Of a stretch of 58,411 nt of DNA, positions 24,558 through 56,783 are shown in pieces (position 1 is the first letter of the stretch; each line of letters opens with the position of its first letter). Where the stretch lies: positions 1-58,411 of the IMG/VR virus record IMGVR_UViG_3300032285_002078; one strand, 5' to 3'. A model generated the notes under the pieces. The model ran no database searches, was not told the DNA's origin, and saw only the letters and a program-made list of their open reading frames with translations. The translations under genes were made by a program, and so were the position numbers. The stretch comes from a virus.

Positions 24558-25310
24558 TTATCGAGCACTTACACCTGAAAAGTAACCCATTATAAACATA
24601 TCTTCTACTTGCTTCTTGGTGGCTGCATATGTTCTATTAATATTCCATGTAGGGTCTGACATAGTTATCGCTGCATTTGTAAATCTGCCTGATGCCGCAG
24701 TTGTTGCACCAATTATAACATTATCAATTGTGCCTGCTGTCGCCGGATTAATAGTAATTGTACCACTTCCAGTTGGGCTTAATGTTACTGTTTGATTATT
24801 GGACACCGCTGAAAGTTGTCCAAGTAATGATGTAGTTTGTCCAAGTGTTCCAAGCGTTAATGTGCTAGACGGGCTTACTGTAACTAATCCCGTCGGGCTT
24901 ATTGTAACATTTGCTGCTGGGCTTAATGTAACAGTATCAGTTGTAGTAAGAGTTGTAAATCTTCCTGGTGCTGCTGTTGTCACACCAATGCTTGTATTGT
25001 TCAGTGCTGCCGTTGTTGCTGGTGCTAGACTAAAAGTACCAGATGTTAAATTTAAATTACCAGTAATATTGACAGTACCTGTAACATTTAATCCGTCTAA
25101 TGTACCTGCAACATGTGTAACACTTGGTCCTAATGTAGTAGGTGTTAATAAAGCATCCCCGTTATAGCCTAAATAAGAACCAGTTGTAAGTTCAATTTTA
25201 GTACCAGTAACTGTAATGGTATTTGTGACCAAGTTTCCTTCAACGTCTACTACAAAATAAGGGCTAACGTATCCGTGTGCTGATCTAAATAATTTAGAAA
25301 CTGTAGTCAT
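24558..25310 (-). CDS. Tail fibre-like repeat protein
   Basis: About 250 residues from the ATG at 25310 (MTTVSKLFRSAHGYVSPYF). This start is preferred because GGAAAA precedes it and the upstream gene ends just before it; an in-frame ATG at 25340 would overlap that gene. After a short N-terminal domain comes a chain of about 45-residue repeats with the theme NPATAGTIDNVIIGATTAASGRFT then TLTTTDTVTLSPAA. The C terminus ATKKQVEDMFIMGYFSGVSAR resembles the tip of trimeric fibres. It shares the repeat with the next two genes upstream. A trimeric fibre subunit is likely. Confidence 0.72.
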   Translation of the reverse strand: MTTVSKLFRSAHGYVSPYFVVDVEGNLVTNTITVTGTKIELTTGSYLGYNGDALLTPTTLGPSVTHVAGTLDGLNVTGTVNITGNLNLTSGTFSLAPATTAALNNTSIGVTTAAPGRFTTLTTTDTVTLSPAANVTISPTGLVTVSPSSTLTLGTLGQTTSLLGQLSAVSNNQTVTLSPTGSGTITINPATAGTIDNVIIGATTAASGRFTNAAITMSDPTWNINRTYAATKKQVEDMFIMGYFSGVSAR

Positions 25311-25320
25311 AGTTTTTCCA

Positions 25321-25995
25321 TTAATACATTGCCATGCCATATGCGGCTGCTAATGCGGCTGCATATCCAAATGTAACTGCACTATTTGGGCCAGCTGGCT
25401 GACTGGTCATTGTTAATGTTGTAAATCTTCCAGATGCAGCAGTTGTTGAACCAATAGCTGTATTATTAATAGTACCAGTTACAGTAGGATTAATAATAAG
25501 AGTTCCTGTACCTACTGGACTAATAGTGATAGTGGCATTGTTGCCGTTCATGTTAACGTTGCCAGTAGTTGTTAGGGTAGTAAAAGTAGCCGGTGCAGGA
25601 GTAATATTACCAATAGTTACATTATTCATAGTTCCTGTGGTCGCCGGAGCAATTGTAATAGTACCTGTTCCTGTTGGGCTTAACGTAACTGTAGCATTTG
25701 CTGAATTTAAATTTACAGTACTGGTTGCAGTTAAGGTTGTAAAAGTTCCTGCTTTAGGAGTACTTGCACCAATAATAACATTATTCAATGCACCAGTTGT
25801 TGCTGGATTAACTGCTAAACTATTTGTTACTGTTAAATCTGCAATTGAACTTCCAGTATTAATATACAATGTATTTGTAACTGCATCAGTAGTTACCGCA
25901 ACACCATTTGTTCCTACAACATTTAAAACATTATTAGATGCATGCAGATTAATTGTGTTTTGACCGCTGACTGTGAGATATGTATAACCGTTCAT
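25321..25995 (-). CDS. Tail fibre-like repeat protein
   Basis: A 224-residue protein, MNGYTYLTVSGQNTINLHAS, with about three and a half copies of the 45-residue repeat (AVNPATTGALNNVIIGASTPK, FTTLTATSTVNLNSAN, and others). The tail AVTFGYAAALAAAYGMAMY differs from the neighbours and could be a trimerisation or attachment tip. It overlaps the upstream gene by four bases (ATGA) and ends 10 bases before the next start, so the three are coupled. The paralogous layout suggests alternating or nested fibre subunits. No enzymatic motif is seen. Confidence 0.72.
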   Translation of the reverse strand: MNGYTYLTVSGQNTINLHASNNVLNVVGTNGVAVTTDAVTNTLYINTGSSIADLTVTNSLAVNPATTGALNNVIIGASTPKAGTFTTLTATSTVNLNSANATVTLSPTGTGTITIAPATTGTMNNVTIGNITPAPATFTTLTTTGNVNMNGNNATITISPVGTGTLIINPTVTGTINNTAIGSTTAASGRFTTLTMTSQPAGPNSAVTFGYAAALAAAYGMAMY

Positions 25996-27182
25996 ACGGC
26001 TGCTCCTAAAAGAATAGCCTGTAATTGGCTGAGTGTTATAAGTTGATTACCTGTTGTACTAGGATTTAAAACTGTTATCGTAGTAAATGTGCCAGACGCT
26101 GGCGTAGTTGCACCAACAGATACATTATTAATAGATCCTAAATTTGTAGGGTTAAAAGAAATAGTACCCGTACCCGTTGGGCTCATAGTAATTGTTTGAT
26201 TGTTGCTAACAAATGATCCTGTTGAATTTACTGTTAATATTGTAGCAATTATAGAATCTGGTGCCGATGCTCCTATACTTACATTATTAATTGTACCGGT
26301 TGTTGCAGGATTAATAGTAACTGTGCCAGTTCCGGTTGGTGCTAATGAAATTTGTTGATTAGTACTAATTGCAGATACTGCACTGGTTGATGTTAATTGT
26401 GTAAATGTTCCATCAGTAGGAGTTGATCCTCCAATATTTACATTATTAAAATTTGATACCGTTATAGTGTTTGCTGTAAAAGAATTAGTAACTGTTAAAT
26501 TAGCAACATTATTCAAACTAAATGTTATTGCACTAGGAGCAGTAGTAATTGTAATTGCACTATCTGTATTTTTAATGTTTAGTTTTGTTAATATAAAATC
26601 AGCAGCTAATGTTGTTTGACCCGGAACTTGAACTAACCCAATATTGCTAATTGCCATAGATCCATTTTCATTGACAGCCATGAATCCGTCAGGAAGATTA
26701 GAATTATTCCAATTTTTAAATACACCCAATTCGCCGCCAGTACTTGAACTTTCGCCATCGATGGTTGGAATATATGTAGGTGTTAGTCTTTCATAGTAGG
26801 TAACTTTAAAAGTTAATTTAACGTGTTCTAACGGGGTAACACCGTCATCTTGATTGAAAGGACTGGCTGTTAATATTACTTTAGATGCGTCAACTGTTGC
26901 GCTGAACTGTACTAAATCTCTACCATTATTATTTCTACTGCTAACCAATACTGATGCCTGTTCGGGTCGAGCAGAAACTTTTACGCTAACATACTCAACA
27001 TCATTTTTTCCGTATTCAGCTACTACTTCGTAAACTGCGCTAGAAAATTCTCCAACAAACCATGTATCTATTACGGTATCCGTTGGAATAGGTATTTCAG
27101 ATCCTTTAACGGACCAGTTTATACCCTTTTTAAGTCTCAGGGTATTTCTTAAGCCTTTAACAAAATAGTCTGCAAAGTTCAT
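25992..27182 (-). CDS. Tail fibre-like protein with N-terminal virion-binding domain
   Basis: A 396-residue protein, start MNFADYFVKGLRNTLRLKKG. The first 170 residues look like a folded domain (IDTWFVGEFSSAVYEVVAEYG, KVSARPEQASVLVSSRNNNG, VKLTFKVTYYERLTPTYIP) that could attach to the virion. The rest is three copies of the 45-residue fibre repeat (INPATTGTINNVSIGASAP). The C terminus STTGNQLITLSQLQAILLG may be a trimerisation segment. It is the first gene of the three-gene fibre unit, with a late box 21 bases before its ATG. Confidence 0.72.
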   Translation of the reverse strand: MNFADYFVKGLRNTLRLKKGINWSVKGSEIPIPTDTVIDTWFVGEFSSAVYEVVAEYGKNDVEYVSVKVSARPEQASVLVSSRNNNGRDLVQFSATVDASKVILTASPFNQDDGVTPLEHVKLTFKVTYYERLTPTYIPTIDGESSSTGGELGVFKNWNNSNLPDGFMAVNENGSMAISNIGLVQVPGQTTLAADFILTKLNIKNTDSAITITTAPSAITFSLNNVANLTVTNSFTANTITVSNFNNVNIGGSTPTDGTFTQLTSTSAVSAISTNQQISLAPTGTGTVTINPATTGTINNVSIGASAPDSIIATILTVNSTGSFVSNNQTITMSPTGTGTISFNPTNLGSINNVSVGATTPASGTFTTITVLNPSTTGNQLITLSQLQAILLGAAV

Positions 27183-27274: not shown

Positions 27275-27850
27275 ATGGGTCGTTATTCAGAGTATTTTAA
27301 TGAAATATGGAAATTGCAAGCTAATCGAAAAGTTATTGGAATAACACTATTTGGTGTATTATTTGACAACTCTGTGCCGTTTACACCTGGCAATCAATTA
27401 ACTGTTGCGGATGGTGCTGATAAGGCTATCCAAATACTCACGCAAAAAGGTTATGATTTTGTTATTATTGCAGGACAAGCACCCAGCAGAACTAAAAATT
27501 TAGATCAGCAAGACTTTGAAAATATTCTAAACGGTACCAGAGAAATATTTGAAAGCATGGGTGCAAGAATTAAAAGTGCATATTATTCTCCGGGAACAGA
27601 CAAATCAGATCCGTATGTTAAACCTAATATTGGAATGTTTGAACGGGCACAGTCTGAAGGATTTATTAAATGGGACGGAACTTACTACGTTGGAGCAGAG
27701 TCTAATGATGTTAAGGCTGCGGCAAAAGTTAAATCAATTCCAGTTTTAATTAAATCAGGCAAAGGATCTAAAACAAAAGCGTTTGAATTAACACATCAGG
27801 TTAAGGTACAAGAATTTGATAGCTTATTAGAATTTGCTAACAGCATATAA
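27275..27850 (+). CDS. HAD-fold protein without catalytic aspartates
   Basis: A 191-residue protein with the fold pattern of the HAD (GmhB/HisB-N) phosphatases: strand ITLFGVLFDN where motif I DxDGT should be, then a helix, VIIAGQAPSRT at motif II, KPNIGMFERAQ (K116, motif III) and YYVGAESNDVKAA at motif IV. The nucleophile aspartate and second aspartate of motif I are replaced (LFG), motif II Thr/Ser is Ala66, and the first motif IV Asp is Ala141. No zinc-binding cysteines. The lysine of motif III and the second Asp of motif IV (D145) remain. It is probably non-catalytic; its role is unknown. AGGAG and a sigma-70-type promoter precede the ATG. Confidence 0.78.
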   Translation: MGRYSEYFNEIWKLQANRKVIGITLFGVLFDNSVPFTPGNQLTVADGADKAIQILTQKGYDFVIIAGQAPSRTKNLDQQDFENILNGTREIFESMGARIKSAYYSPGTDKSDPYVKPNIGMFERAQSEGFIKWDGTYYVGAESNDVKAAAKVKSIPVLIKSGKGSKTKAFELTHQVKVQEFDSLLEFANSI

Positions 27851-27881: not shown

Positions 27882-28493
27882 TTAAAATTCTCTTGAATTT
27901 AGTATATCATCAGTTCCAGTTTGACCTTTCCAAAATGTATTAAATGCCATTGTTCTACGAATTTCAGCTGTTTTATTAGGTAATACTTGATGTCCAACAT
28001 TTGATAATATAAGAAGTAAGTGATTTTTTAAATTAGTTTCAGGTGTTACCAATTCTTTTATACTTACAGGACGTTGTTTTCTATAAAGATAGCAAGGAAT
28101 TTCTTGAACAGTAGTATTCATTGAAAAGTTTAAATTATCCGGGTTATCGTCCAAATACAATACACCGCTAACAACACTAAATGGATGTACGTGATCCTGA
28201 TGGCTGCCTCCTGCTAGAGTTTTATTAGCCCAAGAATTAGATATTTCTATTTTTTCAAAATGTTCAGCACCGTATGCATTTTTTAAATAATTTCCACATT
28301 CGTTTTCTAAAACATCTTTAATTGTTTTAAATTCTTTTCGATTAAAAAGATGTTGATCAATACTTATATCGTTATACTTATTGCGCTTAAATTCAAGTTT
28401 ATCAAATTCTTCACGCAATAAGTCAAAATTTATCTCGTTACTTAAATCTTTAATTAAAACTAAATTGGTAGACAAATTAAAAAATTCGTTCAT
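27882..28493 (-). CDS. 2-oxoglutarate/Fe(II) oxygenase-like protein
   Basis: A 203-residue double-stranded beta-helix oxygenase, family 2OG-FeII_Oxy_5-like. The iron ligands are in SHQDHVHPFSVVSGVLYLDD (H101 and H103, or H98 and D100), with H168 in SNVGHQV as the distal histidine and R179/R180 as the 2-oxoglutarate contact. Such enzymes hydroxylate proteins, sugars or nucleotides; the substrate is unknown. It overlaps the carbamoyltransferase stop by four bases, so it is coupled to it. A terminator follows. Confidence 0.8.
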   Translation of the reverse strand: MNEFFNLSTNLVLIKDLSNEINFDLLREEFDKLEFKRNKYNDISIDQHLFNRKEFKTIKDVLENECGNYLKNAYGAEHFEKIEISNSWANKTLAGGSHQDHVHPFSVVSGVLYLDDNPDNLNFSMNTTVQEIPCYLYRKQRPVSIKELVTPETNLKNHLLLILSNVGHQVLPNKTAEIRRTMAFNTFWKGQTGTDDILNSREF

Positions 28494-30205
28494 ATTACTT
28501 CTTTAAATGCGTTTTTTGTCACCAGCTTGCCGATTTCTGGAAGCCATAAGTATTGCATTTCTGAACGATCTAGAGTTGACAATGCTTCTTTAACTGTTTC
28601 AACTAACGGATCGCCTGCAAGATTAAAGCTGGTATTAAATAAAATAGGAACATTTTTTAACTTGTTAAACTCACTAATTAGTTCATAATAGTGAGGGTTT
28701 TGTTCAGACGTTACTGTTTGAATTCTACAAGTTCCGTCTACGTGTGTGATTGCAGGAATTGAGGATTGTTTATCTTCTAATACATTCACAGCATACATCA
28801 TAAATGGACTGTCTGTACGTGAACGGAAATCAAACCATTCTGATGCATGTTCTGCCATGACTGTACCTGCAAATGGTCTAAACCACTCGCGATGCTTAAC
28901 TTCATTAACAATATCTTTGCCGTTAACAACTGTTGGGTCAAATAAAATTGAACGATTACCTAATGCACGGGGGCCGGCTTCACTGCGTCCTTGATATAAA
29001 CAAACAATGTTCCCGTCTGCAATTAATTTAGCCACTGTAGCGGCACTGGCGTCAGTTTGTAAAAATCCAGTAAAATCAGCATCAGCATAGTTAGCACTAT
29101 TATCAGGTCCAAGATATAAACTTGTCAGCGGAGTTTTTATTGAATCTTTTGTAATTGTCCTATACACATGCTGGCATACCCCCATTACATTTCCACCGTC
29201 GTGGCTTACTGGTTCGTGATAAAATTCAACATCGGGAAATTCTTTTAAAAATTCATAGTTAGCAACACAGTTAAGTACAAAACCTCCAGCCATTACAATT
29301 TTCTTATTACCAGTTATTTCAATTGCTTTTTTAATTAGTGCAATCACACGTTCTTCAGCAGATTTTTGTACGGCATATGCAAGATCTTTTCTAAAATCAT
29401 CAATAAGATCTGGATCAGTGTGCCATGCAACATCGCCTTCGTGCTCTTTTAATTCTGGATTTAAATCGCAACGAATTACATTGCCAGCGGGAAACTTTGG
29501 TTTAATTAAATTACGGTTACTAAATCTGCCTTCGTGAATCTTAATGTTGTTGTTTGGTTTTCCGTACGGTGCAATACCCATCGTTTTTCCTGCTTCGATG
29601 GCATGAAATCCTAGATATTGTGTCACAGCTTCGTAGGTTTTAGTAATACCGTGGCCGTCTGATACTTCAATTTGGCAATCGTCGTCGAACAATTCAAAAC
29701 TATCAACAAGATTTGTACCGTAGTGTACTAACTGACGTTTAATTTCAGCAGGATACCCAAGACTCCAGATAGACTCTACTTCCCATGTTTCCTGCTTTAA
29801 CTGTTCCAAATCAGGAATGTTAATGCCGCTGCCGGCGCCATCAATCACAATAGCGGTAGCAGAATCAAATCCACTATTATAAAATGCTGTTACAGCATGT
29901 GTCATATGATGATCGTCGCCTAGTTTAATAGTTTCTACCTTATGTCCTGGTTGTTTCTTACGAACCAAACAAGTGTAGGCATCTTCACCAGTCCACGGCA
30001 CTTGCCCAAATGCATTACGTGTTCCGCATAATATAAGAAAATCTATATGATCAGTATATTCAAATGCTTTCTCAATGCCTAGAAATGGGTTACCGTCGTA
30101 TTTCAACCTACTTAATCTGTCTTCTTCAATGTAAAAAATTAATTCACTATCTTTGTATAGGGCTGCTGCGCCGTTATGTCCTACATTAATTCCTAATAAC
30201 CACAT
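28490..30205 (-). CDS. Carbamoyltransferase (NodU/CmcH/TobZ type)
   Basis: A 571-residue enzyme that transfers a carbamoyl group from carbamoyl phosphate to a hydroxyl, commonly on a sugar. The N-terminal Kae1-like domain has LGINVGHNGAAALYKD, the metal-binding DDHHMTHA (H99, H100, H103) and VIDGAGSG. GGFVLNCVAN is near 307-316. The C-terminal domain has GRSEAGPRALGNRSIL (406-421) and REWFRPFAG (439-447), signature of the family. The length agrees with NodU/TobZ. AAGGA precedes the ATG. It follows a GT9-type gene by 11 bases, so a glycan is the likely target. I infer modification of a host or virion glycan. Confidence 0.9.
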   Translation of the reverse strand: MWLLGINVGHNGAAALYKDSELIFYIEEDRLSRLKYDGNPFLGIEKAFEYTDHIDFLILCGTRNAFGQVPWTGEDAYTCLVRKKQPGHKVETIKLGDDHHMTHAVTAFYNSGFDSATAIVIDGAGSGINIPDLEQLKQETWEVESIWSLGYPAEIKRQLVHYGTNLVDSFELFDDDCQIEVSDGHGITKTYEAVTQYLGFHAIEAGKTMGIAPYGKPNNNIKIHEGRFSNRNLIKPKFPAGNVIRCDLNPELKEHEGDVAWHTDPDLIDDFRKDLAYAVQKSAEERVIALIKKAIEITGNKKIVMAGGFVLNCVANYEFLKEFPDVEFYHEPVSHDGGNVMGVCQHVYRTITKDSIKTPLTSLYLGPDNSANYADADFTGFLQTDASAATVAKLIADGNIVCLYQGRSEAGPRALGNRSILFDPTVVNGKDIVNEVKHREWFRPFAGTVMAEHASEWFDFRSRTDSPFMMYAVNVLEDKQSSIPAITHVDGTCRIQTVTSEQNPHYYELISEFNKLKNVPILFNTSFNLAGDPLVETVKEALSTLDRSEMQYLWLPEIGKLVTKNAFKEVI

Positions 30206-30216
30206 GTGATAATCCT

Positions 30217-31143
30217 TTATTTTGTTGTTTTAGTAATATGTGCTTTGATATTAGCAATAATACTTTTAAGCTCGTCTTTGCTAAAATCCATGATTGAATC
30301 ATTTAATCTATCTGCTTCTTCAGCTGCAAATCCTGCAATCCTAATAGGGCTATAATGTCTAACAGTATTTTTCTTTTCAACGATGTTAAAGTGCTCTGGG
30401 TATGTAATATTGATTGGAAATGTACTGCCGCATACAATAGTTCCAGGTTTATTAAATGCATATGCTAAATGTTGTCCTACACTATCGCATCCAATAAAGT
30501 AATCACTAGCTTCTATGATTGCAGCCCATATTCTTAATGGCACTATATTGTCTGGCTGGAAAATGGGTAAATTTACAACATTTAACTTATGTTCTCCCAT
30601 ATACATGATATTATAATCTTTAGATAATTCTGCAACTAATTCCATAAAAGTAGATTGTTCTATACTTCTACTGCTTTGATCGTACACTACTCCGCCGCCG
30701 CCCAACATACTGCTTCTTCCAAACGGTTGAATTACAATAGTTTTTTCTTTTTGATGTTGCTGTTTTACTTGCCCAAGAATTTCCATTGCGGCAATTTCTT
30801 CAGATTTATTTAAAACAACTGTTGGTTGAACATTTGCAGTAGTGCGTTCTCCTAATATTTCCCACCAAAAACTTTGTTGCAAACTACTGCGTTGATTGTA
30901 ATATTCTCTGTCTCTGTAAGGCTCTGGGCTAATACAGATATTGTCTTTGATTAAGTTTTCAAATAATCCTTTGTGGTTAACATCCCATGCATATTGTTGC
31001 AGAGTAGGATGACCCATATAAAATTCCATGCCACCTTCGCAAACGATGCCGCCAAGTTCTCCTCGTTTATGACTTTCTTCCAATGCTGGAATGCTGGCCA
31101 GTACACGGCCTGCGCCACCGTTGATAAAAAATATTTTTTTCAT
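30217..31143 (-). CDS. Glycosyltransferase GT9-like (heptosyltransferase type)
   Basis: A 308-residue GT-B enzyme. FFINGGAGRVLASIPALEE is the N-terminal nucleotide-fold strand and loop, IVIQPFGRSSMLGGGG is the start of the second domain, and DYFIGCDSVGQHLAYAFNKP (residues 214-233) with GTIVCGSTFP is the donor-site motif of ADP-heptose:LPS transferases. The family uses nucleotide-activated sugars; the acceptor is unknown. It starts a late unit (CATAAATA box, AAGGG ribosome-binding site) leading into the carbamoyltransferase and an oxygenase. The order suggests glycan transfer followed by carbamoylation. Confidence 0.8.
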   Translation of the reverse strand: MKKIFFINGGAGRVLASIPALEESHKRGELGGIVCEGGMEFYMGHPTLQQYAWDVNHKGLFENLIKDNICISPEPYRDREYYNQRSSLQQSFWWEILGERTTANVQPTVVLNKSEEIAAMEILGQVKQQHQKEKTIVIQPFGRSSMLGGGGVVYDQSSRSIEQSTFMELVAELSKDYNIMYMGEHKLNVVNLPIFQPDNIVPLRIWAAIIEASDYFIGCDSVGQHLAYAFNKPGTIVCGSTFPINITYPEHFNIVEKKNTVRHYSPIRIAGFAAEEADRLNDSIMDFSKDELKSIIANIKAHITKTTK

Positions 31144-31174
31144 TGTTGCCCTTGATAATGTGCGTATATAACTT

Positions 31175-31182
31175 TATTTATG
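31175..31182 (-). promoter_or_regulatory. Late promoter box for the glycan-modification unit
   Basis: Minus-strand CATAAATA, 7 of 8 matches, 32 bases before the GT9 ATG at 31143. The 223-base divergent spacer otherwise contains the plus-strand promoter and A/T-rich sequence. Confidence 0.6.
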
Positions 31183-31312
31183 ATACACGTTTTATTGTAA
31201 AATATTCTTGGTTATATAGTCAACCAATATGTTACCGTATTCTATGTGAGACGCAAAATCAAAACACTCCATCCTGTATCGCTGTTAGCATACAATATAG
31301 TCATTTTTTCTC

Positions 31313-31340
31313 TTGGGAATCAATTAATAGCATATATAGT
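31313..31340 (+). promoter_or_regulatory. Sigma-70-type promoter for the oxygenase run
   Basis: Plus-strand TTGGGA (31313-31318) and TATAGT (31335-31340) with a 16-base spacer, 26 bases before the ATG; TAGGAA follows as a ribosome-binding site. Confidence 0.5.
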
Positions 31341-31366
31341 GTATAAATCAATTACATAGGAATAAT

Positions 31367-31984
31367 ATGAAAAAAGTAGTTAATGCATTTTCAGTGCCTA
31401 TTTTAGAAGCAATTTTTCCATCTAATTCAGATCAGACTTCTGAATGGATGGATAATATAAATTTTTTGCTTGATAGTATGGACGATAAACGATTGTTAAG
31501 TCACGAGTGGAACAATAATGTTGTTACTGATAATAGGAGTACTATTGGATATAGCTCTTTCAATCATGGTAATTTATTAGACGATCCAACATTTCAAAGT
31601 TTTTTTGAAAATATAACTCCATTAATAACTGAATTTTTAGAAAAACTCGAATACACTGGCAACTGGCGATTTGAAAATGCATGGGTCAATGTATATCCGG
31701 TAGGCGCCTATGTTCCATTGCATAATCATGGAAACATGCATTGGAGCGGAGTTTACTATATTACAGCATTAGAAGGTTGTGGCGATTTAAAACTTATTGA
31801 TCCAAAAGAATACGCATTGAGCAACGAACCAAATGGAACCAAATGGAGAGGCGTTAATAATATGAAGATTGATGCTACTACTGATAAACTAGTAATTTTT
31901 CCTGGCTATTTAAAACACGAAACTGATCCAAACTATTCAATAGGTGATAGGGTAGTCATTAGTTTTAATATCATGTGTGTATAA
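31367..31984 (+). CDS. 2-oxoglutarate/Fe(II) oxygenase-like protein
   Basis: A 205-residue DSBH oxygenase. LHNHGNMHWSGVYYI contains H119 and H121, followed by KLIDPKEY. H184 in FPGYLKHETDPN is the distal iron ligand and R195 in GDRVVISFN is the probable 2-oxoglutarate contact. The layout is that of 2OG-FeII_Oxy_5 proteins, common in aquatic T4-like phages. It is first of three consecutive oxygenase genes and is separated from the next by one base. Substrate unknown. Confidence 0.83.
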   Translation: MKKVVNAFSVPILEAIFPSNSDQTSEWMDNINFLLDSMDDKRLLSHEWNNNVVTDNRSTIGYSSFNHGNLLDDPTFQSFFENITPLITEFLEKLEYTGNWRFENAWVNVYPVGAYVPLHNHGNMHWSGVYYITALEGCGDLKLIDPKEYALSNEPNGTKWRGVNNMKIDATTDKLVIFPGYLKHETDPNYSIGDRVVISFNIMCV

Positions 31985-31985
31985 A

Positions 31986-32564
31986 ATGTTATATAATACA
32001 GAATTCCCATTGCTATTAGAAACAACATACGTTGTTGATTCTGAAACTCAACAACGTATGATTAATACTGTATTATCTCAAAAAGATAATGGAAATTATC
32101 ATGGAGGTTACACTTTTCATGTAAAAGATCAATGCGGTGATTTTAAAAATCTATATAATTATTTTTTAAAATCTACTGAAAGTGTTACTGGACCTTTAAC
32201 ATTAGCTCCTCGTAATAAATCTTGGTGCTGGGCCAATGTATATAATCGAGATAATTTTAAAACTAACTTACATGATCATGTTGCAACTTCTTCAATAAAT
32301 GCAATTTATTATTTAAAAATGCCAGTTGATTTAAAACCAAACGAAGGCGGACTGCGAGTCTTTAACATTAATAACGAATTAATAGAATACTACCCTGACG
32401 AATTTGACTTAATAATCATGCCTAGCAATATTCCTCATGAACCGTTATATCATTCATCGGAAGATTTTAGGATAGCTATAAACATGGAAATATGTACTTT
32501 ATTTCCTATTTCTCAAAATTATACAGAAGATAAAATTTATGCAGCCGCGCAACCAAGATTATGA
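31986..32564 (+). CDS. 2-oxoglutarate/Fe(II) oxygenase-like protein
   Basis: About 192 residues from the ATG at 31986 (a GTG at 31977 could add three). LHDHVATSSINAIYYL holds H96 and H98 of the HxH/D motif. NEGGLRVFNINNELIEYYPDE and MPSNIPHEPLYHSSEDFRIAI give H151 and R162 as the distal ligand and 2-oxoglutarate contact. It is the second of the oxygenase run; its stop lies inside the third gene. The sequence is clearly diverged from the first, so this is not a recent duplication. Confidence 0.78.
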   Translation: MLYNTEFPLLLETTYVVDSETQQRMINTVLSQKDNGNYHGGYTFHVKDQCGDFKNLYNYFLKSTESVTGPLTLAPRNKSWCWANVYNRDNFKTNLHDHVATSSINAIYYLKMPVDLKPNEGGLRVFNINNELIEYYPDEFDLIIMPSNIPHEPLYHSSEDFRIAINMEICTLFPISQNYTEDKIYAAAQPRL

Positions 32565-33054
32565 GCAACTACGAGTATTATCAAAAATAATTATTGATCC
32601 AGAATATTGTGACAAAATTATACATAAGTATGATACTGATCTAGAACGTGTAATACAGCAATCTTTTCGAGATGTTCAAATAAAAAACATTAATATAAAC
32701 GATATTCTAGATTTAAAAAATAATATAATTTCTGCAAACGAAATACACTACAAGTTTGATCTTAATTATGATCAATCAGATTGTTTTTTTGCAAGATACG
32801 ATACTGGTATGCATTATCAATCATTTCATTTAGATTGTATTGCAGGAGAACAACAACGTAAATTATCTTTTAGCTTGTTATTAAATGAAGAATTCACAGG
32901 AGGAGAATTTGAATTGTTAGAAGGAGCTCCTATTCCAACAAAAAAGGGAAAATTATTAGTTTTCCCTTCTTTTTTACCTCATAAAATAACACCAATTACC
33001 AGCCAAACACGATATGTTATATTTGGCTGGTTTTATGGTCCAAATTTTATTTAA
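32539..33054 (+). CDS. Prolyl-hydroxylase-like 2OG-Fe(II) oxygenase
   Basis: A 171-residue protein close to the prolyl 4-hydroxylase (P4Hc) group. SFHLDC holds H97 and D99, H148 in SFLPHKITPI is the third ligand, and R158 in QTRYVIFGWF contacts 2-oxoglutarate. FTGGEFELLEG is the connecting strand typical of the group. It overlaps the previous gene by 26 bases. Unlike the other three it has the HxD motif, so its substrate could be a protein; the neighbouring glycine/cysteine-rich adhesins are possible but unproven targets. Confidence 0.85.
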   Translation: MQPRNQDYEQLRVLSKIIIDPEYCDKIIHKYDTDLERVIQQSFRDVQIKNININDILDLKNNIISANEIHYKFDLNYDQSDCFFARYDTGMHYQSFHLDCIAGEQQRKLSFSLLLNEEFTGGEFELLEGAPIPTKKGKLLVFPSFLPHKITPITSQTRYVIFGWFYGPNFI

Positions 33055-33585: not shown

Positions 33586-35214
33586 TTATTTCCAATAGAT
33601 GATAGCCATGCCTGTTCCTGCATTGCTAACTCTCCAATCTAAATCGCTTGGTGGATATGCAAGAGCTGCTCCTGATCCGTTACATAAATCAAATGTTCCG
33701 CCATAACATATACATAATATATAACATCTGTTTACGCCTGCGCCACCGCCTTTGCCTGCTTTACTAGTTAAATTACAAATTCCAACGCCGCCAGATCCAC
33801 CTAATGTTCCAGCACATGTAATCACATTGGGGAATAACGATTGCTGTAATCTATCTGAACAACATACTTTGCCGGCTGTACCTAAACAACATAGTAGTGT
33901 CCAATTTACCATAGTTGAACTACTATTGTAAAAATAAGTAGAATTACAATATACATATGTCACGCCGCCAGTACCTGCACCTTCTCCTGCGTTTTCAGGA
34001 GTGCTTCCGTATGCTATTTTAGTTGCCCATTGAATTGTGCCGCACCAATATTGTGCATCAAAGCTGATACTTTTTCCAGACGATCCGCTGCCGCACATTG
34101 AATGAATATCGTGCCACGGATATGTTTTTGGAGGAGTAGACGGTGTAAATCTTGAACAAGAATGACAGCCATAATAACTACTAGTAGTTTGCACACCCCA
34201 CCAGTAACATTCTCCCTGTCCCTCATTATTATCGGCGCCGCCCCATCCACCGTGGCCTCCTCTCCAATTTCCACTCATGCAGCAATTGCCTACAATTGGT
34301 ACACATTCACAAGATGTACTTGTTTGCCATTTGGTTCCTCCTCCTCCGCCAGCTGTAGGAGGATAGTTAACATTGTAAGCATCAGGCCCGCTTTGGGCTG
34401 GACTTTGTGGAGTACAAATACAACTACAAGCAGATGCTACCATATTGCCTCTAGTTATATAGCCAATTCCGCCGCCTCCTCCTGCACTAGATCCGCCACC
34501 GCTCATACCCCATACTGTAACAGTATTAACCGCATTTTGGCCAGCGCCGCCCGTACTGTAAATCCAAGAGCCTGCAGATCCGCCGCCTGCATATCTTGCA
34601 TTACAGCAATCGTCGCCTTGATGACCTGGGGATATGGCTGTGCCAACGCCTGCATATACAATGCAATAACCGCAGCAAGTTGTGCAAGAAAAACAAATGC
34701 AAGACCCGCAATAATGACTATAGCTACTGCATAAGTTATAGTTGCATCCTGCACAACCACCGTTACTGTTCCAATCGCCTCCTGATGCAACGCCTGCAAC
34801 ACAACCAGCTGCTCCGCCACCTGTAATTGTTCTAGCAACTGCACCAGTATTAGTATATGCAATTGTAGTATCTTGCTCTTGGCGGCCAACAACAATTGTT
34901 ACTGTGCAACCTGCAGCAACTGCATCAACTTTTTCAGCATATCCGCCGCCAGATCCAGCCATTCCGCAACACTGACCAACTGTACATTTACTCTTGCCGC
35001 CGCCGCCAACAGCAATAGTACGTAAACATGTTGCACCACTAGGCAAAGTAAAAGAGTAGTTGCCCGGAGTATCTAAAATAATACGATTGGGCCAGCACTC
35101 GTTAGCATTGTACGTATACTTGTGTTGCGAAGTTTGATAACATGTTGAATTTATAACAGCATTACAACAGTTTGTTCCAACTTGTGTAGATCCTGTACTT
35201 ATATAACGACCCAT
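33586..35214 (-). CDS. Cysteine- and glycine-rich adhesin-like protein A
   Basis: About 542 residues from the ATG at 35214 (MGRYISTGSTQVGTNCC); GGGAAG precedes it, and the open frame to 35259 overlaps the upstream gene. I count 45 cysteines (8%). Glycine runs such as SGGGSSAGGGGGIGY alternate with CC, CxC and CxxC motifs. Segments RTIAVGGGGKSKC and GNYSFTLPSG resemble glycine-rich phage adhesins, which in some T4-like phages fold into polyglycine type II sandwiches at fibre tips. The cysteines could bind metal or form disulfides. It is paralogous to the next gene. Confidence 0.72.
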   Translation of the reverse strand: MGRYISTGSTQVGTNCCNAVINSTCYQTSQHKYTYNANECWPNRIILDTPGNYSFTLPSGATCLRTIAVGGGGKSKCTVGQCCGMAGSGGGYAEKVDAVAAGCTVTIVVGRQEQDTTIAYTNTGAVARTITGGGAAGCVAGVASGGDWNSNGGCAGCNYNLCSSYSHYCGSCICFSCTTCCGYCIVYAGVGTAISPGHQGDDCCNARYAGGGSAGSWIYSTGGAGQNAVNTVTVWGMSGGGSSAGGGGGIGYITRGNMVASACSCICTPQSPAQSGPDAYNVNYPPTAGGGGGTKWQTSTSCECVPIVGNCCMSGNWRGGHGGWGGADNNEGQGECYWWGVQTTSSYYGCHSCSRFTPSTPPKTYPWHDIHSMCGSGSSGKSISFDAQYWCGTIQWATKIAYGSTPENAGEGAGTGGVTYVYCNSTYFYNSSSTMVNWTLLCCLGTAGKVCCSDRLQQSLFPNVITCAGTLGGSGGVGICNLTSKAGKGGGAGVNRCYILCICYGGTFDLCNGSGAALAYPPSDLDWRVSNAGTGMAIIYWK

Positions 35215-35215
35215 T

Positions 35216-36826
35216 TTATGCTTCCCTGTAATATATAATTGCCATGCCTGTTCCGGCATTGCTTACTAGCATGTCAAGTAAACATGGAGGAAATGCTAGT
35301 GCTGGCAAAGAACCGTTACAGCAATCGTAAGTTCCACCATAGCACACACATAGTAGTTGACATTTTGATTGTCCGCCACCGCCACCTTTGCCTGCTTTAC
35401 TAGTATATCTGCACCAGTTTACGCCGCCGGATCCGCCCAGTGTTCCTGCACAAGTAACAAATGTTGGAAACAATGCATCAGACATTAACCATGCTTGATC
35501 ACATTGTCCAGTTGTTCCTAACGAACAAAGTTTTACCCAGTTTACTGGATCTTGATTAACTAACATTATCCCATGCATGGTAGGATTGCAACAAACTGAA
35601 ACAATACCGCCAGTCCCTGCACCTTCGCCAGAATTACGTGGGCGAGGGCCTACAAATCCTCCCCAGCAAGCCATATAATTAGTACGCGAACCAACTGTGC
35701 CTGGACTACCTGATCCTCTCATATCCTGTATATCCCACCAATCATGTTTTGCAATTCCGCAACATTGACTTTTTTCTCTCCAGCCTGTCCAGCAACAACT
35801 GCCGCCAAATGGATATGTACAGAATGCTTTCCAACCCCATTCGTATGTCCAGGCCTGGCCTTCTGATTGGTTGTCTCCGCCTGCGCCGCCATCGCCGCCT
35901 TTCCATACACCATTTGAGCAATCTTGTGATCCAAAACTTCTACAACCATAGCCAAAAGTGATTCTAGTGCCGCCGCCACCTTGGGCCGAACCTGGGTAAT
36001 TTGTACACCAGTTAGTACCTTCACCGTATGCTTCCCATGATCCTCCGCAAATACAATAGCAGCAATTGTAAGACCAATTGCAGCCAGCGTCACAAAAGCC
36101 GCCGATGCCAGCACCGCCGCCAACAGTTCCGCCTGTGCCACCACCACCGCCCGATCCGCAAATTCCCCATGCATAGCCACCGCATAGTGCTAAAAATGAT
36201 CCTGCACTTGCTCCACCAGCAATAGACATACCACAACAGGGACTACCTTCACTTCCAGTTGGTTCGTATTGATAAACAATACAGTATCCGCAACAAGTTG
36301 TTAAAGATATACACTTTTGGCTACCGCAATAATGACTATACGATCCACCGCAGTTATTACAAGTGAAGCCTACGCAACCGCCTCGGCTATTCCAATCTCC
36401 GCCTGTTGCGGCGCCAGGAATACAACCGGCTGCGCCGCCTGCTGTATGTACATTTGTACCATTGCAAGCAAGTGTAGTGTCAGCTTCTTGTCTGCCAACT
36501 ACCACTGTAAATGCCGTTGATCCGCCAGTGATAGCATGAATTTTCTCACTATATGCGCCGCCGGCACCTGCTGCACTATTACAGCCGTTGGTATTACCGT
36601 CGGCAGTTAAACTGATACACTTTGGTTTGCCACCACCACCAACGAGTATGGTTCTTGCACAAATTGCATTTGTAGGTGCAGTCCACGTGTAACTACCTGG
36701 TCTATCAAAGACTACTTTATATTGCCAGCATTGTTTGCCGTCATAGTAGGTCTTTGCACCAGTAACTGTAGGTGCTGTTTTTTCAGCAACACTTACAGCA
36801 TACGAAATTGGTACAAAACGTCCCAT
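35216..36826 (-). CDS. Cysteine- and glycine-rich adhesin-like protein B
   Basis: A 536-residue paralogue of the preceding protein, start MGRFVPISYAVSVAEKTAP. I also count 45 cysteines. The shared order is GSYTWTAPTNA, RTILVGGGGKPKC, a GGDWNSRGGC stretch, SYSHYCGSQKC, LTTCCGYCIVY, and the C-terminal CVCYGGTYDCCNGS and VSNAGTGMAIIYY. Gly-rich runs and CC pairs fall at similar places, but the sequence differs in detail, so the two are old duplicates. AGGAAA precedes the ATG. The arrangement suggests two alternative or paired receptor-binding proteins. Confidence 0.72.
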   Translation of the reverse strand: MGRFVPISYAVSVAEKTAPTVTGAKTYYDGKQCWQYKVVFDRPGSYTWTAPTNAICARTILVGGGGKPKCISLTADGNTNGCNSAAGAGGAYSEKIHAITGGSTAFTVVVGRQEADTTLACNGTNVHTAGGAAGCIPGAATGGDWNSRGGCVGFTCNNCGGSYSHYCGSQKCISLTTCCGYCIVYQYEPTGSEGSPCCGMSIAGGASAGSFLALCGGYAWGICGSGGGGGTGGTVGGGAGIGGFCDAGCNWSYNCCYCICGGSWEAYGEGTNWCTNYPGSAQGGGGTRITFGYGCRSFGSQDCSNGVWKGGDGGAGGDNQSEGQAWTYEWGWKAFCTYPFGGSCCWTGWREKSQCCGIAKHDWWDIQDMRGSGSPGTVGSRTNYMACWGGFVGPRPRNSGEGAGTGGIVSVCCNPTMHGIMLVNQDPVNWVKLCSLGTTGQCDQAWLMSDALFPTFVTCAGTLGGSGGVNWCRYTSKAGKGGGGGQSKCQLLCVCYGGTYDCCNGSLPALAFPPCLLDMLVSNAGTGMAIIYYREA

Positions 36827-55527: not shown

Positions 55528-56202
55528 ATGAAATTAGTCTTTTGCATACCAGGAAATACGTTTAGTAAGGCATTTTTAATCAGCTGGACTCAAACACTTC
55601 AATGGTGCCACGATAATGACATTAGTTATGATGTCAGCATCACATATATTCCAATCATATATCATGCTCGAAATATGCTAATGGGCGGTACTAGATATAC
55701 ACCCCGAACATTTAAACCGTTCAATGGAGCAATTGATTACGATTGGATTATTTGGATAGACAGCGATCAAACTTGGGATCCAAGCGACATTGAACAGCTA
55801 ATTTCAAATCCTGAACATAAAGTTGTTACGGGCATGGTATTAATGTATGACAACGAGCATTTTAATGTTAGCACCTACGACGATACTTCTTATGATAAAC
55901 GTAGATGGTTAACCAGAGAAGATGTTGATATAGGCGGTGAAAGATTTACTACACCTGAATGTGGTATGGGATTTATGGCTGTGCAAAAAGGTGTTTTTGA
56001 ACAGTTAGAATATCCTTGGTTCTTCCCTATGCCGCACGACGAAGAAGAAGTATTATGGTTTGAAGCAGAAGACGGCAGTTTTTGTAATAGGATAACAGAA
56101 TTAGGAATTGAGATTTGGGTTGATCCAAAATTACAAATTGGACACGAAAAACACAGAATACTCACTGCGGAGTTACCACTTGGACTTACAAAACCAGCAT
56201 GA
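55528..56202 (+). CDS. Glycosyltransferase, GT-A fold
   Basis: A 224-residue enzyme. KLVFCIPGNTFSKAFLISW is the first nucleotide-binding strand and IIYHARNMLMGGTRY is the donor region. IWIDSDQTW has D78 and D80 as the metal-binding DxD motif. ECGMGFMAVQKGVFEQL and the C-terminal IGHEKH are typical acceptor-side segments of GT-A enzymes. It overlaps the GT25-like gene by four bases. The sugar donor and acceptor are unknown. Confidence 0.82.
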   Translation: MKLVFCIPGNTFSKAFLISWTQTLQWCHDNDISYDVSITYIPIIYHARNMLMGGTRYTPRTFKPFNGAIDYDWIIWIDSDQTWDPSDIEQLISNPEHKVVTGMVLMYDNEHFNVSTYDDTSYDKRRWLTREDVDIGGERFTTPECGMGFMAVQKGVFEQLEYPWFFPMPHDEEEVLWFEAEDGSFCNRITELGIEIWVDPKLQIGHEKHRILTAELPLGLTKPA

Positions 56203-56783
56203 ACCCAAAGACTTATTTGATAGTATTAGAAAAACATCCACCCAGTGAACAGTTGGCTGCCGAGTGTTTAATCAGTGCTAAAAAGTTTAATTGGGATGTG
56301 GAAATATTTCCTGCGGTTAATGGAAATACTATTACTGAACAAACTTGGTTAGACTATGGTTTAAAAATTTCAGGGCACAGGCCTGCAGATTCAAAATACA
56401 AAGGAACACAAGGTTGTTTTTTAAGTCATTGGACATTATGGAATCGTTGTGTCGATCTTAATACTCCTGTTGTTATATTGGAACAAGATGCTGTGATAGA
56501 AGGCTATTATCCAACTATTCCAGAAACCAACGGTGTTATTAAATTACATCCAGTATATAATGTAGAAGAAGATACCATTTCTGGTACGTGGACATCGTCA
56601 ACTCATGCTTATTATATTGAGCCAAAGACTGCTAAACATGTTATTGAATTTGTAAAAAATAACGGATGGATGGCAGTTGATGTATTACTTGGCAGTAATG
56701 TTGTGGACATTTATCACACCAATCCTGTACTGGTTAATCGACAAAACAAGTTTTCCACAACTATAAATCTTCCTAGTCAATAA
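56199..56783 (+). CDS. Glycosyltransferase GT25-like
   Basis: A 194-residue protein of the LPS/collagen-type GT25 family. TQGCFLSHWTLWNRCVDL (residues 70-87) is the family's G-CFLSH signature and PVVILEQDAVIEG (E95, D97) is the DxD-type region, with one D replaced by Q. SSTHAYYIEPKTAKHVIEF follows. GT25 enzymes transfer galactose or glucose to LPS or hydroxylysine. It is coupled to the GT-A gene and followed by a strong terminator. Confidence 0.82.
   Translation: MNPKTYLIVLEKHPPSEQLAAECLISAKKFNWDVEIFPAVNGNTITEQTWLDYGLKISGHRPADSKYKGTQGCFLSHWTLWNRCVDLNTPVVILEQDAVIEGYYPTIPETNGVIKLHPVYNVEEDTISGTWTSSTHAYYIEPKTAKHVIEFVKNNGWMAVDVLLGSNVVDIYHTNPVLVNRQNKFSTTINLPSQ

What the first reader, a model, noticed from the sequence alone, without database searches (positions are those of the whole stretch)
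27882..33054. Oxygenase, carbamoyltransferase and glycosyltransferase island
Within 5.2 kb there are four diverse 2OG-Fe(II) oxygenases, a NodU/TobZ-type carbamoyltransferase and a GT9-like enzyme. The minus-strand unit runs GT9, carbamoyltransferase, oxygenase from one late box; the plus-strand unit is three oxygenases in a row from a sigma-70-type promoter. Together with the GT-A/GT25 pair at 55528-56783 this looks like a pathway that hydroxylates, glycosylates and carbamoylates a glycan or protein. GT25 enzymes are known to act on hydroxylysine in collagen-type proteins, so a protein hydroxylation-then-glycosylation route on virion proteins is conceivable. This is a candidate undescribed modification system.
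Basis: inference. Interest (0 to 1): 0.72.

Follow-up and report, generated by a model that had tools for sequence, protein, structure and literature searches.

The report
Phage heptose-carbamoyl tail-decoration genes
A group of genes between the tail-fibre genes of a T4-like aquatic virus seems to attach an unusual seven-carbon sugar (heptose), cap it with a carbamoyl group and hydroxylate something, most likely the virus's own tail proteins; the same core gene pair recurs in many aquatic phages and had been labelled only as hypothetical or LPS genes.

Summary
The six genes are real. The conserved core is the "GT9-like" gene plus the carbamoyltransferase: adjacent in 51 of 57 non-redundant relatives, usually among tail genes. 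The GT9-like protein (phrog_8954, function unknown) folds like ADP-heptose heptosyltransferases (TibC, WaaF, WaaC). In P-SSM2, S-CAM1, S-CAM3, S-SSM7 and Sf-FS3 the pair is followed by HldE kinase, HldE adenylyltransferase and HldD. Near relatives of the window encode these genes elsewhere; one does so 10 kb from the same oxygenase/GT9/carbamoyltransferase array. The window's neighbouring gene (27275-27850), not in the finding, is a GmhB-like protein without its catalytic Asp pair.

Best reading: a heptosyl-plus-carbamoyl decoration system, like WapO chemistry on bacterial heptose, with tail proteins as the likeliest acceptor. Fold and gene linkage are well supported; acceptor and oxygenase targets are inferred. 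A DNA (5cmC) role is disfavoured by diagnostic residues and missing thymidylate synthase. The collagen idea has one indirect support (a GT25-PLOD-oxygenase fusion after tail fibres in another cyanophage) and one strike (no G-X-Y repeats). OxA-OxC carry HxH...H, not canonical HxD...H, so their 2OG dependence is unproven. Nothing is experimentally shown.

The parts
27275..27850 (+). GmhB-like HAD protein (heptose bisphosphate phosphatase homologue) with catalytic DxDG motif lost (LDRDGTI -> TLFGVLF); begins MGRY like the neighbouring adhesins
   Evidence: NCBIfam PRK08942 64.6 bits, below the 178-bit cut-off; alignment with active-motif homologues L052, L078, L041 and E. coli GmhB; within 1.5 kb of the carbamoyltransferase in 23/57 non-redundant relatives
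27882..28493 (-). OxA, PF13759 oxygenase, third gene of the minus operon (HVH101-103...H168, R179/180)
   Evidence: same slot in L017 and L058
28490..30205 (-). NodU/TobZ-type carbamoyltransferase, active-site residues conserved (H10, H99-H100..H103, D122)
   Evidence: PF16861 and PF02543; PDB relatives GdmN, NovN-type, TobZ; alignment
30217..31143 (-). GT-B heptosyltransferase-like enzyme (phrog_8954, 'GT9-like')
   Evidence: AlphaFold pLDDT 92.5; Foldseek TibC 5e-10, VIA-align Z 22.1 (3tov), 20.8 (TibC), 20.0 (WaaF), 18.9 (WaaC), other GT-B about 12; hhalign with Waa proteins 95.5%
31367..31984 (+). OxB, PF13759 oxygenase (HNH119-121...H184, R195)
   Evidence: AlphaFold pLDDT 84.3 with jelly-roll matches 2rg4/3bvc Z 20.1, OGFOD1 16.7, bacterial P4H 15.9, PHD2 about 15.6
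31977..32564 (+). OxC, divergent PF13759-like oxygenase (HDH99-101...H154, R165)
   Evidence: PHROG_81 3e-10; Pfam sub-threshold
32539..33054 (+). OxD, PF13640 (P4H/lysyl-hydroxylase-like) oxygenase with canonical HxD97-99...H148...R158
   Evidence: matches the C-terminal oxygenase end of phrog_61, E 4e-30
33586..36826 (-). two glycine/cysteine-rich adhesin-like tail proteins (33586-35259, 35216-36826), candidate acceptors
   Evidence: composition; conserved next to the module (gly6-gly6-orf33 order)
24558..27182 (-). three Ser/Thr-rich repetitive tail-fibre-like proteins (25-29% S+T), candidate acceptors on the other side of the module
   Evidence: family tf3 downstream of the module in relatives
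55528..56202 (+). GT-A glycosyltransferase (phrog_1574), possible accessory gene
56199..56783 (+). GT25 glycosyltransferase, homologue of the GT25 domain of a phage GT25-PLOD-oxygenase protein
   Evidence: PF01755; 26% identity over 169 aa, E 4e-15 with S-8S53

Best explanation
The core of this island is a viral heptose-decoration module. The virus lineage makes ADP-heptose with its own HldE and HldD (GmhB in some), encoded elsewhere in the genome. The GT9-like enzyme moves the heptose to an acceptor hydroxyl. The NodU/TobZ-type enzyme carbamoylates a hydroxyl of that heptose, as WapO is thought to do on Pseudomonas LPS heptose. The oxygenases hydroxylate side chains of the acceptor (creating attachment sites, as PLOD enzymes do) or the glycan. 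The likeliest acceptor is the set of Ser/Thr-rich tail fibres and glycine-rich adhesins encoded on both sides. Shown by sequence and structure comparison: enzyme families, heptosyltransferase fold, conserved GT9-carbamoyltransferase linkage, link to ADP-heptose genes, position among tail genes. Inferred: donor use, order of steps, acceptor, oxygenase substrates.
For: GT9-like model: top Foldseek hit is the protein heptosyltransferase TibC, then WaaF and WaaC; Z 19-22 against about 12 for other GT-Bs. Pair adjacent in 51/57 non-redundant carbamoyltransferase loci. HldE-C, HldE-N and HldD directly follow the pair in P-SSM2 (TIGR02199 106 bits, TIGR02198 148, TIGR02197 210), and the same cassette lies in S-CAM1, S-CAM3, S-SSM7 and Sf-FS3. 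All 8 distinct cyanophages with GT9 above 40% identity and more than 15 kb of sequence also carry HldE kinase, which only 36 of 50,697 phage records have. G004, with the window's gene order (gly-gly-orf33-Ox-Ox-OxD-GT9-CBT-GmhB), has intact GmhB, cupin, HldD and HldE 10 kb away; the 356-kb G002 has HldD, HldE and cupin. GmhB-like gene beside the pair. Precedents: WapO, putative 7-O-carbamoyl transferase on LPS HepII (PMC8005017); TibC heptosylates adhesin protein (PMC4358343). Cyanobacterial LPS is reported to lack heptose (PMC4390846), so a phage heptose need not be for host LPS there. GT9 homologues also lie among tail genes in unrelated Vibrio and Aeromonas phages.
Against: No acceptor is shown. 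The window itself has no HldE/HldD, though it is a 58-kb fragment. The phage GT9 family seems to have an invariant Arg where WaaC/F/U/Q have catalytic Asp13 (the alignment there is weak). GmhA is absent from all 15 records tested. The adjacent GmhB-like protein has lost its catalytic pair. The oxygenases vary between relatives (29/57 within 6 kb). All HldE hits fall below the curated NCBIfam cut-offs. Host of this virus unknown.
Confidence: 0.5

Rival explanations
1. The same enzymes act on host LPS or another surface glycan: the phage adds a carbamoylated heptose to the infected cell surface, for example to block superinfection or release trapped progeny.
For: Heptosyltransferase and carbamoyltransferase are LPS-core enzymes in bacteria (PMC8005017); Sullivan et al. 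filed these clusters as LPS genes (PMC3037559); GT25 is a named LPS family.
Against: Cyanobacterial LPS is reported without heptose (PMC4390846), yet cyanophages carry most of the pathway; the genes sit among tail fibre and adhesin genes in diverse phages; Foldseek ranks the protein heptosyltransferase first, though by Z it is close to the LPS-type enzymes.
Confidence: 0.22
2. DNA base modification: the carbamoyltransferase makes 5-carbamoyloxymethylcytosine or similar, with the oxygenases hydroxylating bases.
For: A phage-derived carbamoyltransferase of this family does exactly this to 5hmC (PMC8670742).
Against: 25% identity to that enzyme; of the diagnostic TobZ positions 408/421/423 the window has L/G/R, the 5hmC enzyme I/C/T; thymidylate synthase/dCMP hydroxymethylase family absent from 15 of 16 records including the 345- and 356-kb ones; no TET/JBP family hit among the oxygenases.
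Confidence: 0.04
3. A loose collection of auxiliary genes: the oxygenases serve 2-oxoglutarate/nitrogen metabolism or DNA repair and only happen to lie beside a glycan pair.
For: Cyanophages carry many such oxygenases, and these roles have been proposed (PMC3037559); the oxygenase set varies between relatives.
Against: Oxygenase genes sit directly behind the carbamoyltransferase or between GT9 and it on the same strand in many relatives; the window's three-oxygenase unit is kept at the same place in L007, L009, L013, L016, L017 and L033.
Confidence: 0.18
4. The GT9-like enzyme uses a different nucleotide sugar and the HldE/HldD linkage reflects a related but non-heptose pathway (PfkB kinase + CTP_transf + EcbF-type HAD + WbuC-like cupin).
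For: GmhA is missing; a cupin and an EcbF-type HAD are extra; catalytic Asp apparently replaced; HldE hits below cut-offs.
Against: Best family matches of three separate genes are all ADP-heptose enzymes; HldD reaches its curated cut-off in G019 and G020.
Confidence: 0.15

Closest known systems
TibC/AAH bacterial autotransporter heptosyltransferases (BAHT; PMC4358343)
   Same: GT-B heptosyltransferase fold (Foldseek 5e-10; Z 20.8, rmsd 3.0 over 267 residues); repetitive adhesin genes next door
   Different: No four-Cys iron finger, no N-terminal 97-residue beta-barrel, apparent Asp to Arg at the catalytic position; acceptor unknown
GT9 LPS heptosyltransferases WaaC/WaaF/WaaQ
   Same: Fold (Z 19-20), C-terminal DSxGxH motif, profile match 95.5% over the C-lobe
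   Different: PF01075 not reached; encoded among phage tail genes; catalytic Asp apparently not conserved
WapO-type heptose 7-O-carbamoyltransferase of Pseudomonas LPS (PMC8005017)
   Same: Carbamoyltransferase linked to heptose chemistry
   Different: Sequence not compared here; here encoded with tail genes of a phage
5-hydroxymethylcytosine carbamoyltransferase (PMC8670742)
   Same: Phage-type enzyme of the same carbamoyltransferase family
   Different: 25% identity, diagnostic residues differ, no thymidylate synthase partner
PLOD/procollagen lysyl hydroxylase-glycosyltransferases and phage phrog_61
   Same: GT25 and P4H-type oxygenase homologues, fused in phage S-8S53 just after a tail fibre and two oxygenases
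   Different: Here separate genes 23 kb apart, no PLOD GT domain, no collagen repeats
Cyanophage 'LPS' clusters of P-SSM2, S-SSM7, S-SM2 (PMC3037559)
   Same: T4-GC 302/303/304/305/307/308 are this GT9, carbamoyltransferase and ADP-heptose cassette in P-SSM2 and S-SSM7
   Different: Described there as LPS or possible stuffer genes; no heptosyltransferase, carbamoyl-heptose or tail link proposed in the passages read

Membership tests
GT9 heptosyltransferase (PF01075) | GT-B heptosyltransferase fold | tested here: met
   Z 22.1 to GT9 3tov, 20.0 WaaF, 18.9 WaaC against about 12 for other GT-B
GT9 heptosyltransferase (PF01075) | Pfam PF01075 above gathering score | tested here: not met
   No PF01075 hit for the window protein at E 0.1; PSSM2_307 E 0.011, 15.4 vs 22 bits
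GT9 heptosyltransferase (PF01075) | Catalytic Asp near the N-terminus (WaaC D13) | tested here: inconclusive
   Invariant G12-R13 in 33 phage sequences against invariant G12-D13 in WaaC/F/U/Q; alignment there is weak
GT9 heptosyltransferase (PF01075) | C-lobe D-x-G-x-x-H donor-binding motif | tested here: met
   D220-S221-V-G223-Q224-H225, aligned to D261/H266 of WaaC
BAHT (TibC/AAH) | Iron finger of four Cys | tested here: not met
   Only Cys 35, 70, 219, 238; no CxxC pair
BAHT (TibC/AAH) | N-terminal beta-barrel (residues 1-97 of TibC) | tested here: not met
   Phage protein starts at TibC residue 97 in the structural alignment
NodU/TobZ carbamoyltransferase | PF02543 + PF16861 above cut-off and active-site residues | tested here: met
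5hmC carbamoyltransferase system | Diagnostic residues and a thymidylate-synthase-family partner | tested here: not met
   L/G/R against I/C/T at TobZ 408/421/423; PF00303 in only 1 of 16 records
WapO heptose carbamoyltransferase | Carbamoyl transfer to heptose O-7 | not testable with these tools
   Needs an assay; only the genomic link to heptose genes was tested
GmhB phosphatase (27275-27850) | HAD catalytic DxDGT | tested here: not met
   TLFGVLF in the window; DRDGT kept in L052, L078, L041
ADP-heptose pathway encoded by this virus lineage | HldE kinase, HldE adenylyltransferase, HldD | tested here: met
   In relatives G002, G004, G010, G011, G017, G021, W01-W04, below curated cut-offs (HldD passes its own in G019/G020); absent from the 58-kb window fragment
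ADP-heptose pathway encoded by this virus lineage | GmhA isomerase | tested here: not met
   PF13580 in 0 of 15 records
2OG-Fe(II) oxygenase | HxD/E...H metal triad and 2OG-binding Arg | tested here: inconclusive
   Met for OxD (H97-x-D99, H148, R158); OxA-C carry H-x-H...H with a conserved Arg
PLOD-type lysyl hydroxylase-glycosyltransferase | GT25, PLOD GT and 2OG domains in one protein acting on collagen-like repeats | tested here: not met
   Separate genes, no G-X-Y runs in the window; the fusion was seen only in another cyanophage

The most novel reading that the evidence does not exclude
Many aquatic T4-like phages build their own ADP-heptose and put carbamoylated heptose on hydroxylated or Ser/Thr residues of tail adhesins, using a heptosyltransferase family distinct from both the LPS and the autotransporter enzymes: the first phage protein heptosylation and the first carbamoyl-sugar on a virion.
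Probability: 0.35. Interest if true: 0.82.

Novelty: new variant of a known kind. Interest (0 to 1): 0.62.

Why it matters
Carbamoyltransferases, oxygenases and 'LPS genes' have been listed in cyanophage genomes for years without a shared purpose (PMC3037559 even considers stuffer DNA). A concrete, cheap prediction now exists: specific mass additions on virion tail proteins of phages already in culture. If true, it would show that phages chemically tune or shield their host-binding proteins with a sugar that, by the cited review, cyanobacterial LPS lacks, and it would assign function to phrog_8954 and to neighbouring orphan genes in several phage groups.

Tried and rejected
DNA hypermodification (5cmC): rejected on diagnostic residues and absent thymidylate synthase. 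BAHT membership of the GT9-like protein: rejected (no iron finger, no N-terminal barrel). Collagen-type acceptor: no G-X-Y runs in the window. Promoter claims: the simple consensus scans give no clear support. PDB sequence search with the GT9 alignment found nothing useful, so a fold comparison was needed. Bacterial relatives of the GT9-like family: only 8 loci in marine or groundwater MAGs, probably viral contigs; not followed. Literature searches for phage heptose plus tail modification gave no prior description, but most subscription papers are not held. The GT-A/GT25 pair was not tested for co-occurrence with the island across relatives.
Full report
What is in the sequence. The six reported genes are present and open at the given coordinates. 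The minus unit GT9-like/carbamoyltransferase/OxA is tightly packed (11-nt gap, 4-nt overlap), and the plus unit OxB/OxC/OxD overlaps gene by gene. Pfam confirms the carbamoyltransferase (PF16861, PF02543), three oxygenases above threshold and one just below it. The record is a 58.4-kb virus record, to judge by the longer records of its relatives a fragment, with head, tail-sheath, tail-tube, baseplate and tail-fibre genes.

The conserved core is smaller and clearer than the island. In 57 non-redundant full-length carbamoyltransferase loci fetched by similarity, the GT9-like gene is adjacent in 51 (most of these loci were selected on the carbamoyltransferase, not on GT9). An oxygenase lies within 6 kb in 29 and a GmhB-like HAD gene in 26. 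Gene-order strings repeat: glycine-rich adhesin, adhesin, small gene, oxygenases, GT9, carbamoyltransferase, (oxygenase), GmhB-like, tail-fibre-like genes. In L070, L092 and L100 an oxygenase sits between GT9 and carbamoyltransferase, with tryptophan halogenases around.

What the GT9-like protein is. Sequence searches are nearly silent: phrog_8954 of unknown function, weak heptosyltransferase III hits (E 0.001), PF01075 at E 0.011 for its P-SSM2 relative. An AlphaFold model built on 33 relatives has pLDDT 92.5. Foldseek puts TibC, the protein heptosyltransferase solved with ADP-heptose, first (E 5e-10), then WaaF, a GT9 enzyme and WaaC; VIA-align gives Z 22.1 (3tov), 20.8 (TibC), 20.0 (WaaF), 18.9 (WaaC), with other GT-Bs near 12. 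Profile comparison with E. coli WaaC/F/U/Q gives 95.5% over the C-lobe. It is not a BAHT member (no iron finger, no barrel), and the canonical catalytic Asp appears replaced by an invariant Arg, so its chemistry may be unusual.

Where the heptose comes from. In P-SSM2 the GT9-carbamoyltransferase pair is followed by genes whose best NCBIfam matches are HldE adenylyltransferase, HldE kinase, an EcbF-type HAD, a cupin and HldD; the same cassette follows the pair in S-CAM1, S-CAM3, S-SSM7 and Sf-FS3. HldE kinase is rare (36 of 50,697 phage records), yet all eight distinct GT9-positive cyanophages with more than 15 kb of sequence have it (hypergeometric 2.8e-26 against the whole collection, 2e-9 against a deliberately small assumed denominator of 400; phages are related, so these numbers overstate independence). 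Closer relatives of the window have it too: G002 (356 kb, GT9 78% identical) at 335-338 kb, and G004, whose array closely matches the window's gene content and order, with intact GmhB, cupin, HldD and HldE 10 kb downstream of the degenerate GmhB-like gene. The window shows none of them, but it is a fragment. GmhA was not found anywhere; the host may supply the precursor.

What the carbamoyltransferase does. Its active-site residues are conserved. Two precedents were considered: a 5hmC carbamoyltransferase from phage contigs (PMC8670742) and WapO on Pseudomonas LPS heptose (PMC8005017). The first is disfavoured: 25% identity, L/G/R instead of I/C/T at the diagnostic TobZ positions 408/421/423 (the PDB chain numbering runs 6 ahead of the published one), and no thymidylate synthase family gene in 15 of 16 records. 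Linkage to a heptosyltransferase favours the second, by chemistry rather than by tested membership.

What the acceptor is. Nothing here shows it. Location is the main clue: the module is flanked by tail fibres and adhesins in the window, in Kyanoviridae and, for the GT9 gene alone, in Vibrio phage SBP1 and Aeromonas phage HJ05. Cyanobacterial LPS is reported to lack heptose (PMC4390846), which weakens the LPS reading for cyanophages; the host of this virus is unknown. Flanking fibres are rich in Ser/Thr (25-29% in the three genes at 24558-27182). TibC acts on repetitive beta-helix adhesins (PMC4358343), a functional parallel only.

The oxygenases. OxB models as a jelly-roll oxygenase closest to two marine bacterial structures of unknown function (2rg4, 3bvc; Z 20.1), then OGFOD1, bacterial P4H, SnoN and PHD2 (Z 15-17). 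Most of these next-best matches are protein hydroxylases, but a shared fold shows no function. OxA-C have H-x-H...H instead of H-x-D...H; OxD is canonical. OxD and the distant GT25 match opposite ends of phrog_61; in phage S-8S53 that protein is a 621-residue GT25-PLOD-oxygenase fusion two oxygenase genes after a tail fibre.

Verdict. A conserved glycan-decoration module with heptose as the most probable sugar and carbamoyl as its cap; virion tail proteins are the most probable acceptor but unproven. Parts of the gene content were described before as LPS or stuffer genes (PMC3037559) or heptose-related genes (PMC7378029); the joint reading and its mass-spectrometric test appear new in the library searched.

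Noticed in passing
27275-27850, 33586-36826; loci L005-L110: GmhB-like proteins (39 of 51) and the glycine-rich adhesins (27 of 45) share the N-terminal peptide MGR[FY], seen in 78 of 1681 genes in all; in several GmhB-like proteins it is followed by a Q/P/G-rich linker. Possible shared virion or assembly tag.
   Followed up: partly
L127:7062-7628 and L127:17098-17715: One virus carries both a degenerate GmhB-like gene beside the carbamoyltransferase and an intact GmhB in its ADP-heptose cassette, suggesting a new role for the degenerate one.
   Followed up: partly
L125:3959-5824 (Synechococcus phage S-8S53): A phage GT25 + PLOD-GT + 2OG oxygenase fusion protein (PF25342 2.4e-47) encoded after a tail fibre and two oxygenases.
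   Followed up: partly
27882-28493, 31367-32564: Three PF13759-type oxygenases have an H-x-H...H triad in place of H-x-D/E...H.
   Followed up: partly
L102:16030-16374 (PSSM2_311): Annotated phosphoheptose isomerase, but best matches are EcbF-type HAD phosphatases; no GmhA (SIS) was found.
   Followed up: yes
L070, L092, L100, L101, L045: Tryptophan halogenases surround the GT9/oxygenase/carbamoyltransferase operon in some viruses, and a PF13469 sulfotransferase gene lies near it in L045; further tailoring enzymes in the same neighbourhood.
   Followed up: partly
L115-L122: The GT9-like gene occurs in marine and groundwater MAG contigs labelled Euryarchaeota, Marinimicrobia, Woesearchaeota and others, probably mis-binned viral contigs.
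   Followed up: no
L002:14916-16631, L003:10723-14305: Other cyanophage nol/carbamoyltransferase genes lie by DNA polymerase or a gene annotated thymidylate synthase and are more distant; they may be a separate, DNA-related branch.
   Followed up: no
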